From contig JAGQGA010000300.1 in assembly GCA_020432595.1 (NCBI GenBank), forward strand, positions 1 to 6,762: DNA of 6,762 nucleotides, in the 5' to 3' direction. Of this stretch, positions 1,367 through 5,193 are shown piece by piece; position 1 is the first letter of the stretch; each line of letters starts with the position of its first letter. This DNA is from Anaerolineales bacterium. Lineage in GTDB: Bacteria; Chloroflexota; Anaerolineae; Promineifilales; Promineifilaceae. A program made the position numbers and the translations under genes. The notes beneath the pieces are model-generated. The model saw only the letters and a program-made list of their open reading frames with translations. It made no database searches and was not told the origin of the DNA.

Positions 1367-1440
1367 AGAGATTGGAGATTGGAAATTAGAGATTGGTCGC
1401 TTTGTTAGTGCCAATCTCCAATCCCTAATCTCCAATCTCC
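1367..1440 (-). repeat. Long imperfect inverted repeat (hairpin) between binding-protein gene and livH
   Basis: The two 30-base arms at 1367-1396 and 1411-1440 match at 25 of 30 positions around a 14-base loop. They are built from repeats of the word GGAGATTGG. In the minus-strand (sense) transcript four of the five mismatches become G-U pairs, leaving one true mismatch, so the RNA hairpin is strong. It starts 8 bases after the livJ stop and ends 9 bases before the livH ATG. It has no U-tract, so it is not a classic terminator. A role in mRNA stability or partial attenuation, giving more binding protein than permease, is an inference from REP hairpins in other operons. Confidence 0.8.
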
Positions 1441-1448
1441 CACGTCAA

Positions 1449-3818
1449 TTAATTTTCCGACAGCAGCGTAAACGCCCCATCCTGGATTTGGAAGAGGGAG
1501 AACGCGCCAAATTCGTTTTGGTTGTGTTCATCAAAGCGAACGGGCAGACCAAGCGGTGTGGTTGCCAAGTCCATGTTGCCAAGGGCATCTACGATGCAGG
1601 CGCGGGAAACGTCGCCGGCCGCGACACAGGTTTCAATGGCATCGAGGGCGATGTAGGCGGTGAAGGCGGCGGCACCACCAAAGGCTCCAAACGATTCGCT
1701 GTATTCAGCAGCGTACCGTTCGTTGTAGGGAGCCATGGTTGGGACAAGGTTGGGATCGGGGGAGAAGAAGGTGACGTAAGCACCTTCTGCTGCGGCACCA
1801 GCCGTATCTACCCAACCAATGGCAAACCCACCATCAGGCAGATAATAGACACCTTCATACCCCTGCTCCCGCAGTTGCACGGCCAGGGTGGCAATTTGGG
1901 CTTCGATTTGCGAGGGGAAGAAGACGACATCAGAGTTAGCGGCAATAACGGCCGTTGCAATGGAAGAGAAATCCGTCTCCTCCTGCGTCACCGATGCCCG
2001 CTGAATATCTGCCACACCACCATCAACCAAGAGTGCTTCCAGTTCGTCAGCCAAACCAGTAGCATATGATGTTTGATCATCTACCATGTATATGGAGGTG
2101 ATGCCCAGTGTATTGATCATATGCTCAGCAATGGTCGCGCTTTGGGCAGCGTCGGTGGGAATGGGGCGAAAGAAGGTGGCCGTACCGGGATCGGTGAGAT
2201 CAGTACGGGTGCAAGATTGGGTAAGGTGAGCCAAGCCAGCTTCGGCAAACACGGGCTGAGTGGATTCACACACTTGGCTGCCGGCCGGGCCTACCACCAC
2301 AAATATTTCGTCATCAGCCGCCTGACGTTCAGCCACAATGCGACCGGTATCGGGATTAATTTCGGTATCGCCTGGTTCAACAACCACGTTCAGCCCGGTG
2401 CGTTCGTTAAAGAGATCAACGGCTACTTGCACAAAGCCGAGCTGTTCCTCGCCTACAAAAGCAGCACCACCTGTCAACGGGCCAAGGAAACCTAGCTTAA
2501 TGACACCGTCATAGCTTAACTGGGGCACTTCAACTTCAACCGCCATGCCAGCCTGATCGCCATCCAACAGGACAAAACCGCCGTCTTGCACCTGAAAGAG
2601 GGAGAAGCTACCTTCGGCCTGGTTGCCTTCACCAAATTTGACAGGAACACCGAGAATGGTGGCAGCGATGTCGGTATTGCCCATTTCAGTTACCACGCAG
2701 TCGCGGGTAACGGTGCCAGCTTCTGCACAGCGGCCGGCCGCTTCCAGCATCACCTGGGTTGCCATGGCGGTTGCCCCGCCAAACGCGCCAAAGGAGTCGC
2801 TGTATTGGGCGGTGTAGGCAGCGTTATAGTCGGCCATAGAGGGAACAAGGTTGGGATCAGGGGCAAAGAAGGAGACGTAGGTTCCTTCGGCCGCCGCCCC
2901 AGCGGTGGCTACCCAGTCAGGGGAGAAGCCACCATCGGCCAGGAAGTAAATACCATCGAATGCTTGTTCACGCAGTTGAACAGCAAGAGTGGCGATTTGG
3001 GCGGTGATCTGGCTGGGGAAGAAGACAAGGTCGGAGTTGGCGGCAAGAACGGCCGTTACCACGCTCGAAAAGTCCGTCTCCTCCTGCGTCACCGACACCC
3101 GCTGAATATCGCTCACGCCCATTTCATTCAGTACCGCTTCAATCTCATCATTCAACCCAACCGAATAGGAAGATTGGTCATCCACCAGGAAAGCTGAAGT
3201 AATGCCCAGCACGTCCACCATGTAGGCAGCATCGGTCGCGCTTTGGGCAGCATCGGTGGGGACAGGGCGGAAGAAAACAGGGGAACCAGGCTGGGTCAGG
3301 TCGGTGCGGGTGCAGGAAGGGGTAATGTAGGCCAAGCCTGCTCCCTCGAACACGCTCATGACGGATTCACACACCTGGCTGCCGGCTGGGCCAACCACAC
3401 CAATCACCGAATCATCTGCCACCAAACGCTCGGCCACAATGCGGCCCGTGTCGGGGTTGATTTCGGTGTCGCCTTCAATAATGTTAACTTCGATACCGGT
3501 TTCAGCCGTAAAAATATCGGCCGTTACTTTGGCAAAGCCCAGCATTTCCTGCCCAATAAAGGCGGCTCCACCCGTTAACGGCCCCATAAAGGCGATGGTG
3601 ATGGGGCCATGATCCATCGCTTCTTCCTCCACGGCTGGCTCTTCGGCCGGGGCTTCTTCAGCCGGAGCCTCAGCCTCTTCGGCGGCTGGCTCTTCGGCCG
3701 CTGGTTCTTCAGCCGCAGGTGCCTCAGCAGGCGTTTCGGCTGTCGGTGCTTGGCGGCACGCAGCCAAAACAAGGGTAAACAAAAGCAAAATCGTTACAAA
3801 CCGGGTAAGTTTTTTCAT
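1449..3818 (-). CDS. Tandem double-domain LivJ-type ABC substrate-binding lipoprotein
   Basis: Extracellular solute-binding component of the HAAT importer encoded just downstream. 789 residues, about twice the usual 370-400. Residues 1-20 are a signal peptide with lipobox LVLAAC (Cys21 lipidated). Residues 22-67 are a low-complexity Ala/Glu/Pro linker. Two full Peripla_BP_6 domains follow, about 72-418 and 439-788. They align almost without gaps at an offset of 367 residues: GPLTGGAAF at 79 and 446, NPDTGRIVAER at 121 and 488, SVTQEETDFSS at 242 and 609, FFPSQ at 266 and 633. By eye they share roughly two thirds of residues. Each has the same four cysteines (C150, C169, C364, C374; C517, C536, C731, C741), possible disulfides. 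The start is supported by GGAG five bases before the ATG. It ends in TAA. Ligand unknown; whether both lobes bind the same ligand cannot be told. Confidence 0.92.
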   Translation of the reverse strand: MKKLTRFVTILLLFTLVLAACRQAPTAETPAEAPAAEEPAAEEPAAEEAEAPAEEAPAEEPAVEEEAMDHGPITIAFMGPLTGGAAFIGQEMLGFAKVTADIFTAETGIEVNIIEGDTEINPDTGRIVAERLVADDSVIGVVGPAGSQVCESVMSVFEGAGLAYITPSCTRTDLTQPGSPVFFRPVPTDAAQSATDAAYMVDVLGITSAFLVDDQSSYSVGLNDEIEAVLNEMGVSDIQRVSVTQEETDFSSVVTAVLAANSDLVFFPSQITAQIATLAVQLREQAFDGIYFLADGGFSPDWVATAGAAAEGTYVSFFAPDPNLVPSMADYNAAYTAQYSDSFGAFGGATAMATQVMLEAAGRCAEAGTVTRDCVVTEMGNTDIAATILGVPVKFGEGNQAEGSFSLFQVQDGGFVLLDGDQAGMAVEVEVPQLSYDGVIKLGFLGPLTGGAAFVGEEQLGFVQVAVDLFNERTGLNVVVEPGDTEINPDTGRIVAERQAADDEIFVVVGPAGSQVCESTQPVFAEAGLAHLTQSCTRTDLTDPGTATFFRPIPTDAAQSATIAEHMINTLGITSIYMVDDQTSYATGLADELEALLVDGGVADIQRASVTQEETDFSSIATAVIAANSDVVFFPSQIEAQIATLAVQLREQGYEGVYYLPDGGFAIGWVDTAGAAAEGAYVTFFSPDPNLVPTMAPYNERYAAEYSESFGAFGGAAAFTAYIALDAIETCVAAGDVSRACIVDALGNMDLATTPLGLPVRFDEHNQNEFGAFSLFQIQDGAFTLLSEN
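1455..2504 (-). repeat. Second copy of the internal LivJ-domain duplication
   Basis: Codes residues 439-788 of the binding protein. It is colinear with the copy at 2565-3605 at an offset of 1101 bases. The longest exact match noticed is 23 bases, 1972-1994 against 3073-3095. One residue is inserted near the end (around 765-772), which shifts the offset to 368 residues for the final FSLFQ segment. The third positions and many residues differ, so this is an old duplication and not an assembly artefact. Confidence 0.9.
2565..3605 (-). repeat. First copy of the internal LivJ-domain duplication
   Basis: Codes residues 72-418 of the binding protein, the membrane-proximal lobe following the Ala/Glu/Pro linker. 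It pairs with the copy at 1455-2504. The palindrome AACGGCCGTT is kept at the equivalent place in both copies (3048 and 1947), so it probably predates the duplication or is maintained. Confidence 0.9.
3618..3755 (-). repeat. Ala/Glu/Pro low-complexity linker-coding repeat
   Basis: Short degenerate tandem units coding AAEEPAAEEP-like residues 22-67 between the lipidated Cys21 and the first binding domain. Such flexible acidic linkers are usual in Gram-positive-like and Chloroflexota solute-binding lipoproteins and hold the domain away from the membrane. Confidence 0.75.
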
Positions 3819-3898: not shown

Positions 3899-3945
3899 AG
3901 TTGCCGTCAACCCGCTAAATTTCTAATGACCCACACTAAACAGCT

Positions 3946-3959
3946 AACTGATAACTGAT
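3946..3959. repeat. Tandem heptamer AACTGAT x2
   Basis: Two perfect copies lie back to back 27 bases past the stop of the ahpD-like gene. A similar doubled heptamer (CGCTAAT) lies at 4624-4637 at the end of the peroxiredoxin gene. These look like debris of short intergenic repeat words; no function is suggested. Confidence 0.5.
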
Positions 3960-3985
3960 TACCGCCCCACATCACCTCCCTAACA

Positions 3986-4546
3986 TCAAATATTGCTCAA
4001 TCCTTGCTCCCAAAAATCCTCCAACTCCACGCCCAGGCCGTCTACGGTACGGTTGCACCAGGCGAAGAAGCCGGTAATTTGGTTGATTTCCAGAATGGCC
4101 TTGTCGCCAAAGCCCACGTCACGCAAACGGTCAATGTCAGCAGAAACGGCCGTTGCTGGAGCCAGCGTCACCTTTGCCACATAATCCAGCATCGCCCTGT
4201 CCGCCTCCTCCAACGCCGCCTGCCGATAATCCACCTTCATCTGTGCCACCCACTCTGCATCACCCGCTTCCCTGAGGAGACCCTCCCCATGATGGCGAAT
4301 TCAGTAGTGGCATTCATTGAGTACGGAAACGGTAACGGCTATCATCTCCCGCTGCTTCAGCGTCAAATCACAGTCCCCGTGCATCAATCCATTGTAAAAG
4401 GTCATCAACGCCCGCAGTGCCGCCTTGTTCAGGCTGTGGGCTTTGATGATGTTGTCCACACCACCCCAGGAACGGGCAGTTCCTTTATATATCTTGGCAA
4501 CCACCCCGGTTGCTTCATCCTCAGAAACCGTCTTGATCCAGGCCAT
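3986..4546 (-). CDS. AhpD-like (carboxymuconolactone decarboxylase family) selenoprotein with CxxU active site
   Basis: 186 residues with an in-frame TGA at codon 82 (4303-4301) read as selenocysteine. The halves 1-81 and 83-186 are in one frame and both match the peroxidase-related AhpD-like family: DNIIKAHSLN (31-40), LTLKQREMIAVTVSVLNECHY (61-81), then IRHHGEGLLREAGDAEWV, and VDGLGVELEDF near the end. The residues E67, C79, Sec82 and H86 reproduce exactly the spacing of E118, C130, C133 and H137 of M. tuberculosis AhpD, with Sec at the second cysteine. In that system AhpD is a thiol-disulfide adaptor that reduces the peroxiredoxin AhpC. Here a peroxiredoxin gene lies 86 bases upstream, so the same role is inferred. 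A SECIS-like hairpin follows the TGA. The true stop is also TGA. No clear Shine-Dalgarno precedes the ATG. Alternatives: a nonsense mutation, unlikely given the position and the partner gene. Confidence 0.88.
4273..4289 (-). promoter_or_regulatory. Bacterial SECIS-like hairpin after the ahpD-like TGA
   Basis: Starting 11 bases after the UGA, the RNA forms a seven-pair stem (U-A, G-C, G-U, G-C, G-C, A-U, G-C) around GGU. The word GGUCU starts exactly 18 bases after the UGA, with GGU as the seventh codon. In E. coli fdhF the GGU of GGUCU is also the seventh codon after UGA, and there this loop binds SelB. An outer stem CAUCA/UGAUG (4290-4294 and 4258-4262) may close the structure. It also codes protein (GEGLLR), as bacterial SECIS elements do. 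SelB recognition is inferred from the similarity. Confidence 0.75.
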
Positions 4547-4566
4547 AAGAATTGGGAAGGGAAAAC

Positions 4567-4620
4567 TGAGAATAGAGGCTGGAAAATGACGTGTTTATCA
4601 TTCTCCAGTCTCTATTCTCA
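4567..4620. repeat. Inverted repeat between peroxiredoxin and ahpD-like genes
   Basis: Arms of 23 bases (4567-4589 and 4598-4620) match at 21 positions around an 8-base loop. The placement copies the livJ-livH gap: 12 bases after the upstream stop and 20 bases before the downstream ATG. No U-tract follows. It could tune the ratio of the two proteins, or simply be a dispersed intergenic repeat of this genome. Confidence 0.75.
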
Positions 4621-4632
4621 ATTCGCTAATCG

Positions 4633-5109
4633 CTAATCGCCGGTGGCAATCTCCTGCACCTTAGCTAACACTGCCTCGATATCGGGCAACCCTTTTTTAA
4701 AAACTTCAGCATGGCGCACCATGCCTTGCGTATCCAAAATGATAATGGCGCGGCGGCTTGTCCCCCAATCTTCGGACCAAAGACCATAATCTATCGTCAT
4801 TTTGCCCTTGGGGTGGAAATCAGCCAGCAGCGGAAAGGTGACTTCAAGCTGCTCGGCAAAAGCAATGTGGGCAGGAATGCTGTCTACGCTGATGCCCAGA
4901 ACCTGGGCATTTAGCTCCTCAAATCGGGAAAGATTATCCTGAAATGAACGGAGCTCGCTGCGTCAACCGCCGGTAAAGTCAAGAATGTAAAAGGCCAAAA
5001 CGACAATCTTGCCTTGCAGCTGATCCCGTGTCGTTGGCGTGGGGCCAACCGTGGCGGGTAAGCTAAAGTCAGGGGCAAGCTGCCCAATTTCTGGTAATTG
5101 TCCAGCCAT
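4633..5109 (-). CDS. Selenocysteine-containing peroxiredoxin (1-Sec type, AhpE/AhpC-TSA family)
   Basis: 158 residues with an in-frame TGA at codon 49 (4965-4963) read as selenocysteine at the peroxidatic position. Thioredoxin-fold peroxidase that should reduce H2O2 or organic peroxides in the cytoplasm. Visible: IGQLAPDFSLP (8-18), GKIVVLAFYILDFTGG (33-48), Sec49, RSELRSFQDNLSRF (50-63), VLGISVDSIPAH (70-81), TFPLLADFHPKG (91-102), SRRAIIILDTQG (118-129). This is the standard Prx order and length. The motif is TxxU with E52 following as in CxxE; the usual Pro three before the Thr is Ile42. R119 or R120 is the likely catalytic Arg. There is no cysteine anywhere, so no resolving thiol: recycling needs an external partner, probably the next gene. 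The start has GAGGAGG ten bases upstream, and an in-frame TAA at 5118-5116 excludes earlier starts. Confidence 0.9.
4913..4955 (-). promoter_or_regulatory. Candidate SECIS element after the peroxiredoxin TGA
   Basis: Seven bases after the UGA a foldable segment begins. AGCUCC (4950-4955) pairs with GGAGCU (4913-4918), then UCA/UGA, UC/GA and GGA/UCC continue inward with small symmetric mismatches to a 7-base loop UAAUCUU (4930-4936). The loop starts 26 bases after the UGA, within the range of bacterial SECIS. It lacks the loop GG of the E. coli element, so the assignment is less sure than for the ahpD-like gene. Confidence 0.4.
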
Positions 5110-5119
5110 ATGTGATTAT

Positions 5120-5126
5120 CCTCCTC
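5120..5126 (-). promoter_or_regulatory. Ribosome binding site of the peroxiredoxin gene
   Basis: The minus strand reads GAGGAGG ten bases before the ATG at 5109. It decides this start over the out-of-frame ATG at 5147, which has a weaker AAGGA four bases upstream. Confidence 0.7.
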
Positions 5127-5165: not shown

Positions 5166-5193
5166 ATCATACCCCACTCACTTTAAATGGCAA
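5166..5193 (-). promoter_or_regulatory. Sigma70-like promoter of the selenoprotein pair
   Basis: TTGCCA (5188-5193, 5 of 6 to consensus) and TATGAT (5166-5171, 5 of 6) are separated by 16 bases. Transcription would begin near 5159, leaving a leader of about 50 bases with the GAGGAGG site. It separates the prx-ahpD unit from the upstream SBBP gene. No operator was recognised. Confidence 0.55.

What the first reader, a model, noticed from the sequence alone, without database searches (positions are those of the whole stretch)
3986..5109. Two adjacent selenoproteins forming a possible peroxidase-reductase couple
The peroxiredoxin contains no cysteine, so its oxidised Sec cannot be resolved internally. 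The next gene encodes an AhpD-like CxxU protein, and AhpD is the known reductant of AhpC in M. tuberculosis. Both genes share a promoter and both use Sec at the redox centre. A fully selenium-based AhpC/AhpD-type peroxide defence unit is the most interesting system in this window; I know of no described example, but cannot search.
Basis: inference. Interest (0 to 1): 0.9.

Follow-up and report, generated by a model that had tools for sequence, protein, structure and literature searches.

The report
Two neighbouring selenoprotein genes, link unproven
Two antioxidant-type genes that both seem to build selenium into their active site sit side by side in an uncultured bacterium, but both gene families are already known and we saw them side by side in none of the other genomes searched, so a dedicated partnership remains a guess.

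Summary
The genes are real: on the minus strand, an AhpE-type peroxiredoxin (4633-5109, UGA at the peroxidatic site, no Cys) and, 86 nt on, a TIGR01926 AhpD-like gene (3986-4546, C-x-x-UGA). UGA-containing relatives are common, so both UGAs very likely encode Sec; a SECIS-like hairpin was found only in the AhpD-like gene.

Corrections: the peroxiredoxin is AhpE-like, not AhpC-like. A shared promoter is not shown: a strong, terminator-like hairpin lies between the genes, and the second gene has no visible Shine-Dalgarno.

Of 400 Chloroflexota genomes 44 hold both families, in none as neighbours; among 165 loci held only the window shows both. Sec/Cys covariation is not significant (p 0.14), though co-occurrence is mildly raised (p 0.0018).

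Best reading: two described selenoprotein families adjacent in one lineage, probably working separately. A lineage-specific all-selenium couple is not excluded (about 0.2). A 2008 survey already reports one read with another Prx-like/AhpD-like selenoprotein pair.

The parts
4633..5109 (-). AhpE-type 1-Sec peroxiredoxin gene (158 aa)
   Evidence: Open frame with one TGA; AhpC-TSA 3.2e-33; closest solved chains AhpE
4963..4965 (-). In-frame TGA, Sec49, peroxidatic position
   Evidence: U in 35 and C in 26 of 61 aligned Prx sequences, window included
3986..4546 (-). TIGR01926 AhpD-like gene (186 aa, stop TGA)
   Evidence: 145 bits against cut-off 81.8; model best matches 6k40
4301..4303 (-). In-frame TGA, Sec82 of the C79-x-x-U82 motif
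   Evidence: U in 44, C in 27, S in 3 of 74 aligned, window included
4273..4289 (-). SECIS-like hairpin of the AhpD-like gene: 7-bp stem, loop GGT starting 18 nt after the UGA
   Evidence: window p 0.056; 34 of 44 sequences p<0.1 against synonymous recoding
4564..4623 (-). Inverted repeat (26-nt arms) in the gap between the two genes; strong hairpin, partly listed as terminator-like
   Evidence: (-38.7 kcal/mol, z -8.5)
5120..5125 (-). Shine-Dalgarno-like AGGAGG of Prx
   Evidence: read from the upstream sequence
5166..5193 (-). Promoter-like match upstream of Prx (consensus match only)
   Evidence: 10 of 12; chance mean 1.5 for the region

Best explanation
Two individually known selenoprotein families are neighbours in this lineage and most likely work side by side rather than as a dedicated couple. 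The first is an AhpE-type 1-Sec peroxiredoxin: the Sec49 selenolate would attack peroxide (sequence-supported by T46, U49, R120), and the oxidised Sec, with no Cys in the protein, would be regenerated by an outside reductant such as a low-molecular-weight thiol or a redoxin (inferred from AhpE). The second is a TIGR01926 AhpD-like protein with the complete relay set E67-C79-Y81-U82-H86: it would run a C79-U82 selenenylsulfide cycle, either reducing peroxides itself or passing electrons from a dithiol donor such as a lipoyl protein to several peroxidases (inferred from the family). That the UGA is Sec is well supported for the AhpD-like gene and supported by homology alone for the Prx; the separate working is inferred from missing linkage.
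For: UGA at the exact redox codon in many relatives: 18 of 21 AhpD-like loci in the GTDB r220 contig scan; 43 of 73 AhpD-like and 32 of 69 Prx loci in all. E67, C79, Y81, H86 in 74 of 74 aligned AhpD-like sequences, R120 in 61 of 61 Prx. SECIS-like hairpin in the AhpD-like gene. Not linked elsewhere: no Prx in 21 of 21 AhpD-like loci (flanks up to 8 kb); both families in 44 of 400 Chloroflexota genomes, on one contig in 2 of them and there about 5 Mb apart; of 166 sequences (165 loci and the window) only the window holds both. Different neighbours: a cupin gene after Prx in G336 and G418; PhyH, ketopantoate hydroxymethyltransferase, transporter and others before AhpD-like genes (10 of the neighbours examined in each, of 168 found). 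Different distributions: in the 52-genome family with the closest LivK, AhpD-like genes in 32 (24 with a TGA match) but Prx in 2, weak and without TGA. Fourteen of the 44 genomes pair a Prx without stop with a TGA AhpD-like gene.
Against: The two genes are adjacent, co-oriented and 86 nt apart here, and both use Sec; a chance meeting of two selenoprotein genes is not very likely. Co-occurrence in 400 genomes is above expectation (44 against 31; odds ratio 2.1, p 0.0018), and U/U is the largest class (25 of 44). The window's genome is not held and the best Prx relative is 61% identical, so lineage-specific coupling cannot be tested. A 1-Sec Prx does need an outside reductant.
Confidence: 0.6

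Rival explanations
1. Dedicated couple: the AhpD-like Sec protein is the reductant of the 1-Sec Prx. Peroxide oxidises Sec49; C79 or U82 of the AhpD-like protein attacks it, the C79-U82 bridge closes and is reopened by a lipoyl or similar donor. The two are made from one transcript.
For: Adjacency and orientation; no Cys in the Prx and the full relay set in the AhpD-like protein. M. tuberculosis AhpC and AhpD share an operon and AhpD serves AhpC (PMC3141380, passages). [quoted passage not shown] Mild co-occurrence, p 0.0018.
Against: No conserved neighbourhood in what was searched; each family common without the other; Sec/Cys covariation p 0.14. M. tuberculosis AhpE is reduced by mycothiol and/or mycoredoxin, and AhpD-to-AhpE transfer is called not firmly established. 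Strong, terminator-like hairpin between the genes and no Shine-Dalgarno for the second.
Confidence: 0.2
2. The AhpD-like protein acts on something other than peroxides or peroxidases (proteins of this fold include a debrominase and the sestrins), so its neighbour tells little.
For: Structure matches beyond AhpD-like proteins include debrominase Bmp8 (E 2e-5) and, weakly, sestrin 2 (E 2e-3). A PhyH dioxygenase gene lies directly upstream of the Sec form in three Latescibacterota loci examined, L002, L003 and L005.
Against: All five residues of the AhpD-type relay are kept. The best structure match is D. radiodurans 6k40, and the D. radiodurans mutant lacking its AhpD-like protein is H2O2-sensitive (PMC8945050).
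Confidence: 0.15
3. One or both UGAs are real stops (decayed genes or sequencing error), most plausibly in the Prx, whose UGA has no recognisable SECIS.
For: Prx hairpin score p 0.93 in the window and only 7 of 33 Prx sequences at p<0.1; the plain folding-energy test is null for both window genes; Sec machinery cannot be checked in this organism.
Against: TGA at the same column in 34 other Prx sequences and conserved sequence downstream of it, e.g. P0003 79% identical over 53% of the protein. Of 32 related or compared genomes, SelB passes its cut-off in 27 and tRNA-Sec in 28.
Confidence: 0.05

Closest known systems
AhpD-like selenoprotein family (COG2128 / TIGR01926, CxxU), 'AhpD-like 1' of the marine surveys
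   Same: Same NCBIfam family, over cut-off, same CxxU motif. 299 Sec sequences in the GOS survey (PMC2398784, table passage), 27 in the Sargasso Sea survey (PMC1088965, passages); the 2026 review equates AhpD-like with TIGR01926 (PMC13188914, table passage)
   Different: Nothing essential: a new member. Here it lies beside a Sec-Prx
Prx selenoprotein family (pfam00578, TxxU)
   Same: Same Pfam and TxxU motif; 253 Sec sequences in GOS
   Different: This one is AhpE-like; only 61.7 bits to NCBIfam PrxU, cut-off 270
[quoted passage not shown]
   Same: A Sec peroxidase-type gene next to a Sec AhpD-type gene
   Different: UxxC Prx-like 1 and AhpD-like 2 (pfam02627) there; TxxU Prx and TIGR01926 AhpD-like here. 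The read itself was not compared
M. tuberculosis AhpE (Rv2238c), 1-Cys peroxiredoxin
   Same: Closest solved chains by sequence (E 7e-23); 33-34% identity and TM about 0.9 in Foldseek; no resolving Cys in the window protein
   Different: Sec instead of Cys; reductant unknown
D. radiodurans AhpD-like protein (6k40) in a cell that also has AhpE
   Same: 35% identity, TM 0.90; an AhpE (DR_2242) and an AhpD-like (DR_1765) in one cell (PMC8945050)
   Different: Cys forms; by their locus numbers (DR_1765, DR_2242) not neighbours
M. tuberculosis AhpC/AhpD
   Same: Peroxidase and CxxC adaptor in one operon (PMC3141380, passages)
   Different: AhpC is a Prx1-type enzyme; neither window protein is of the same subfamily

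Membership tests
TIGR01926 peroxidase-related (AhpD-like) family | Score over the curated cut-off | tested here: met
   145 bits against 81.8
TIGR01926 peroxidase-related (AhpD-like) family | Relay Glu, Cys, Tyr, Cys/Sec, His in AhpD-like spacing | tested here: met
   E67, C79, Y81, U82, H86 as Glu36, Cys48, Tyr50, Cys51, His55 of PA0269 (PMC3141380, passages)
AhpD proper (M. tuberculosis type) | Match to a model of AhpD proper | tested here: not met
   Of 6 NCBIfam families listed only the short core domain TIGR00778 bears the AhpD family's name; no full AhpD-proper model
AhpE-type 1-Cys peroxiredoxin | Closest solved relatives are AhpE; one peroxidatic residue, no resolving Cys | tested here: met
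   by structure AhpE chains rank next to Sulfolobus Bcp4
AhpC (Prx1, 2-Cys) | Score over the AhpC cut-off and a resolving Cys | tested here: not met
   57.4 bits against 272; no Cys
Bacterial selenoprotein (Prx) | UGA at a redox site where homologues have UGA or Cys | tested here: met
   U in 35 and C in 26 of 61 aligned, window included
Bacterial selenoprotein (Prx) | SECIS hairpin with G in the apical loop downstream of UGA | tested here: not met
   best score 5, p 0.93; a simple contiguous-stem test, so a degenerate element is not excluded
Bacterial selenoprotein (AhpD-like) | UGA at a redox site where homologues have UGA or Cys | tested here: met
   U 44, C 27, S 3 of 74 aligned, window included
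Bacterial selenoprotein (AhpD-like) | SECIS hairpin with G in the apical loop downstream of UGA | tested here: met
   7-bp stem, GGT loop; window p 0.056, 34 of 44 sequences p<0.1; total folding energy not unusual
Bacterial selenoprotein | SelA/SelB/SelD and tRNA-Sec in the same genome | not testable with these tools
   No genome held for the window; relatives only
AhpC/AhpD-type peroxidase-reductase couple | Conserved gene neighbourhood | tested here: not met
   neighbours in 0 of 44 co-carrying genomes, 0 of 21 loci, window only among 166 sequences; no close relatives available
AhpC/AhpD-type peroxidase-reductase couple | Sec/Cys covariation between partners | tested here: inconclusive
   25 U/U, 1 U/C, 14 C/U, 4 C/C (C = no stop in the listing), Fisher p 0.14
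AhpC/AhpD-type peroxidase-reductase couple | The AhpD-like protein reduces the Prx | not testable with these tools
   needs enzymology

The most novel reading that the evidence does not exclude
A lineage-specific, all-selenium AhpE/AhpD unit: a 1-Sec AhpE-type peroxiredoxin whose oxidised Sec is reduced directly by the C-x-x-U AhpD-like protein encoded next to it, a selenium-to-selenium relay fed by lipoyl or similar dithiols.
Probability: 0.2. Interest if true: 0.65.

Novelty: new member of a known kind. Interest (0 to 1): 0.32.

Why it matters
Which reductant serves AhpE-type peroxiredoxins in bacteria without mycothiol is open; a review raises the question for Deinococcus (PMC8945050, section 4.1). 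A lineage with a Sec-AhpE next to a Sec-AhpD-like gene is a natural test case. As it stands, the useful results are that TGA-containing Prx and AhpD-like genes are both common in Chloroflexota (69 and 56 of 400 genomes), that the window's Sec AhpD-like clade spans several phyla, and that gene linkage does not support a general couple.

Tried and rejected
Viral contigs with both alignments: no relatives. Plasmids with the AhpD-like protein: 372 records, all under 60% identity. Rfam scan of the window: 10 matches at E<=5, none at its gathering score. Plain folding energy against synonymous recoding: not unusual for either window gene, so a position-specific hairpin test was used. Synteny upstream of LivK in G758 could not be read, because the contig ends there. 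AhpC-type and AhpD-proper assignments rejected on model scores. Two AlphaFold2 models confirmed the folds only; no complex was modelled.

The 400-genome sample is drawn evenly from a larger phylum (that of G012, the genome of a record titled Chloroflexi bacterium), with E<=1e-20 for both families; it was searched twice and the handles agree. '1 TGA' or 'none' was taken from the listing; the codon was checked only where a locus was fetched. Three Prx genomes and one AhpD-like genome whose only match had another stop are in the totals of 122 and 102 but in neither the TGA nor the no-stop class; none of them is among the 44. Fetched Prx and AhpD-like loci from the genome search reach at most 1.5 kb to each side. 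Of the 165 loci, some cover one place twice (L148-L157 re-fetch earlier places), some were fetched for LivK, and some hold only distant Prx. The trees are quick ones with SH-aLRT support only.

Full report
OBSERVATION. On the minus strand of the window, reading TGA as a residue opens two frames: a 158-aa peroxiredoxin (4633-5109, TGA at 4963-4965) and a 186-aa AhpD-like protein (3986-4546, TGA at 4301-4303). Pfam gives AhpC-TSA (3.2e-33) and CMD (1.9e-12). NCBIfam puts the second over the cut-off of TIGR01926 (145 against 81.8 bits) and the first over no cut-off of the 12 families listed. The Prx has no Cys; the AhpD-like protein has C59, C79 and C164. Its stop codon is TGA as well, so the gene would use UGA both as Sec and as stop. 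Flanking genes are an SBBP beta-propeller protein upstream and a liv-type branched-chain amino acid transporter downstream. No genome is held for the window.

ARE THE UGAs SELENOCYSTEINE? In the protein database (the best 120 of each listed), 33 of 120 AhpD-like hits begin just after the UGA site and 3 end just before it; of the longer ones whose site could be read, 40 have W there (as gene callers using code 4 would give; a true Trp is not excluded), 34 have C and 7 another residue. Of 120 Prx hits, 50 are pieces of at most 111 aa without the active-site motif. In DNA loci that I could read, TGA stands at the aligned codon in 43 of 73 AhpD-like and 32 of 69 Prx loci. In the aligned sets, window included, the site is U in 44, C in 27 and S in 3 of 74 AhpD-like sequences, and U in 35 and C in 26 of 61 Prx sequences, distant Prx left out. 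In 32 genomes that I picked, SelB passes its cut-off in 27 and tRNA-Sec in 28. This discriminates poorly: four picked genomes with no-stop forms of both families (G054, G168, G259, G271) also have SelB over the cut-off, and TGA carriers G418, G905 and G403 do not. A SECIS-like hairpin with GG in the apical loop follows the AhpD-like UGA (TGGGGAG-GGT-CTCCTCA in the window); related loci make it in other registers, some with different stem letters. Against synonymous recoding with each locus's codon usage, the window has p 0.056 and 34 of 44 sequences (window included, not independent) have p<0.1. The same test finds nothing for the window Prx (p 0.93; 7 of 33 sequences at p<0.1), and a plain folding-energy test is null for both window genes. 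So Sec is well supported for the AhpD-like gene and by homology only for the Prx.

WHAT THE PROTEINS ARE. The Prx is closest by sequence to solved M. tuberculosis AhpE chains; its model (pLDDT 92.2) matches Sulfolobus Bcp4 first and AhpE chains next. It carries T46, U49 and R120, the last in 61 of 61. AhpE-type enzymes have Tyr or Phe where Prx6 types have an active-site His (PMC12697902, passages); the window has Tyr41 at what I take, from recall, to be that place. The AhpD-like model (pLDDT 94.3) matches D. radiodurans 6k40 (TM 0.90, 35% identity), 3c1l, 2pfx, 2oyo and 2prr. E67, C79, Y81 and H86 are invariant in 74 of 74 and match the relay Glu36-Cys48-Tyr50-Cys51-His55 of PA0269, with U82 in place of Cys51 (PMC3141380, passages).

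NEIGHBOURHOOD TEST. The GTDB r220 contig scan gave 21 AhpD-like loci, 18 with TGA and 3 distant ones with Ser; the TGA records are titled Latescibacterota, Gemmatimonadetes, Acidimicrobiales, Actinomycetota, Nocardioidaceae, KSB1, Planctomycetota, Chloroflexi and one uncultured bacterium. None of the 21 has the Prx in the flanks held (up to 8 kb). Of the 18 TGA genomes, 16 have a Prx match at E<=1e-10, none over 41% identity. In 400 Chloroflexota genomes, Prx (E<=1e-20) is in 122 (69 with TGA, 50 with no-stop matches only, 3 other) and TIGR01926 in 102 (56, 45, 1). Both are in 44 against 31 expected (odds ratio 2.1, p 0.0018); they share a contig in 2 of the 44, about 5 Mb apart. The 44 split 25 U/U, 1 U/C, 14 C/U and 4 C/C (Prx/AhpD-like, C meaning no stop in the listing; p 0.14). 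An HMM search of 165 loci and the window found both families only in the window. Of the 32 TGA-Prx loci 28, and of the 43 TGA-AhpD loci 41, have at least 700 bp on both sides, so an immediate neighbour would usually have shown. The closest Prx genomes are G336 and G418 (61% in the listings); there the next gene is a cupin. G336 has a 40% identical TGA AhpD-like gene on another contig. The closest LivK found is in G758 (70-73%, 346 genomes of the class). Its 52-genome family has AhpD-like matches in 32, 24 of them with TGA, and Prx in 2, weak and without TGA. Its order (56 genomes) has no Prx at 1e-30. A class sample of 386 gave Prx in 11, the best again G336.

EVOLUTION. This points to horizontal spread. 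In the Prx tree (61 rows) the window is nearest to Sec rows L071 and L041, but no strongly supported set holds it; Sec and Cys forms need 4 changes. The two families seem to have different histories.

OPERON? The 86-nt gap holds an inverted repeat with 26-nt arms that folds at -38.7 kcal/mol (z -8.5). The scan lists its inner 12 pairs as terminator-like; in the fold that T-rich tail is part of the longer stem, so termination or attenuation is possible, not shown. A Shine-Dalgarno sequence is seen only before Prx. Co-transcription is possible, not shown.

MECHANISM. The Prx Sec would be oxidised by peroxide and must be reduced from outside. In M. tuberculosis AhpE is reduced by mycothiol and/or mycoredoxin; [quoted passage not shown] AhpD takes electrons from lipoyl proteins (same section), and in C. 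glutamicum an AhpD-like oxidoreductase with another active-site motif serves several peroxidases (PMC10460364, passages with parts of the abstract). I favour two separate selenoenzymes with overlapping roles (0.6); the dedicated couple gets 0.2.

LITERATURE. Both families were described as selenoproteins by 2005 and 2008 (PMC1088965 and PMC2398784, passages). [quoted passage not shown] the 2026 review repeats part of this (PMC13188914, passages and section 9). A 2022 review was seen in passages (PMC9312934). In the held library, the listings show no title or abstract start that describes a TxxU Prx beside a TIGR01926 AhpD-like selenoprotein. Of the 7 papers I looked into 4; Haft and Tolstoy 2025, which treats selenoprotein neighbourhoods, is not held and may describe such a pair.

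Noticed in passing
window 1947, 3048, 4145, 5236, 5553, 5733, 6189, 6638: The palindrome AACGGCCGTT occurs 8 times in 6.8 kb against a mean of 0.00 in 200 dinucleotide shuffles: a highly iterated palindrome, in coding and non-coding sequence.
   Followed up: partly
window 1449-3818(-): The LivK-like binding protein is a tandem duplication of Peripla_BP_6 in one reading frame; G758 has a similar 831-aa frame matching 70-73%.
   Followed up: partly
window 1368-1439, 4564-4650, 3930-3970: Intergenic inverted repeats and heptad-like repeats (CCAATCT/CTAATCT, TAATCGC, TAACTGA), one between LivK and LivH, one between Prx and the AhpD-like gene; they recall the short heptad repeats of cyanobacteria (from memory).
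   Followed up: no
L002 7133-7978, L003 6010-6912, L005 7132-7977: In three Latescibacterota loci a PhyH dioxygenase gene lies 20-46 bp upstream of the Sec AhpD-like gene on the same strand; in two Acidimicrobiales loci (L008, L011) it is ketopantoate hydroxymethyltransferase.
   Followed up: partly
L149 6864-7406, L150 1573-2343: In the two genomes with the closest Sec-Prx (G336, G418) a cupin gene follows Prx by 3 and 16 bp; possibly another partner.
   Followed up: no
window 3986-3988(-): The AhpD-like gene ends in TGA although it seems to read an internal TGA as Sec.
   Followed up: no
protein database hits P0001-P0240: Many database entries of both families start just after the UGA, end just before it, or show Trp there, so both selenoprotein families are often mis-annotated.
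   Followed up: partly
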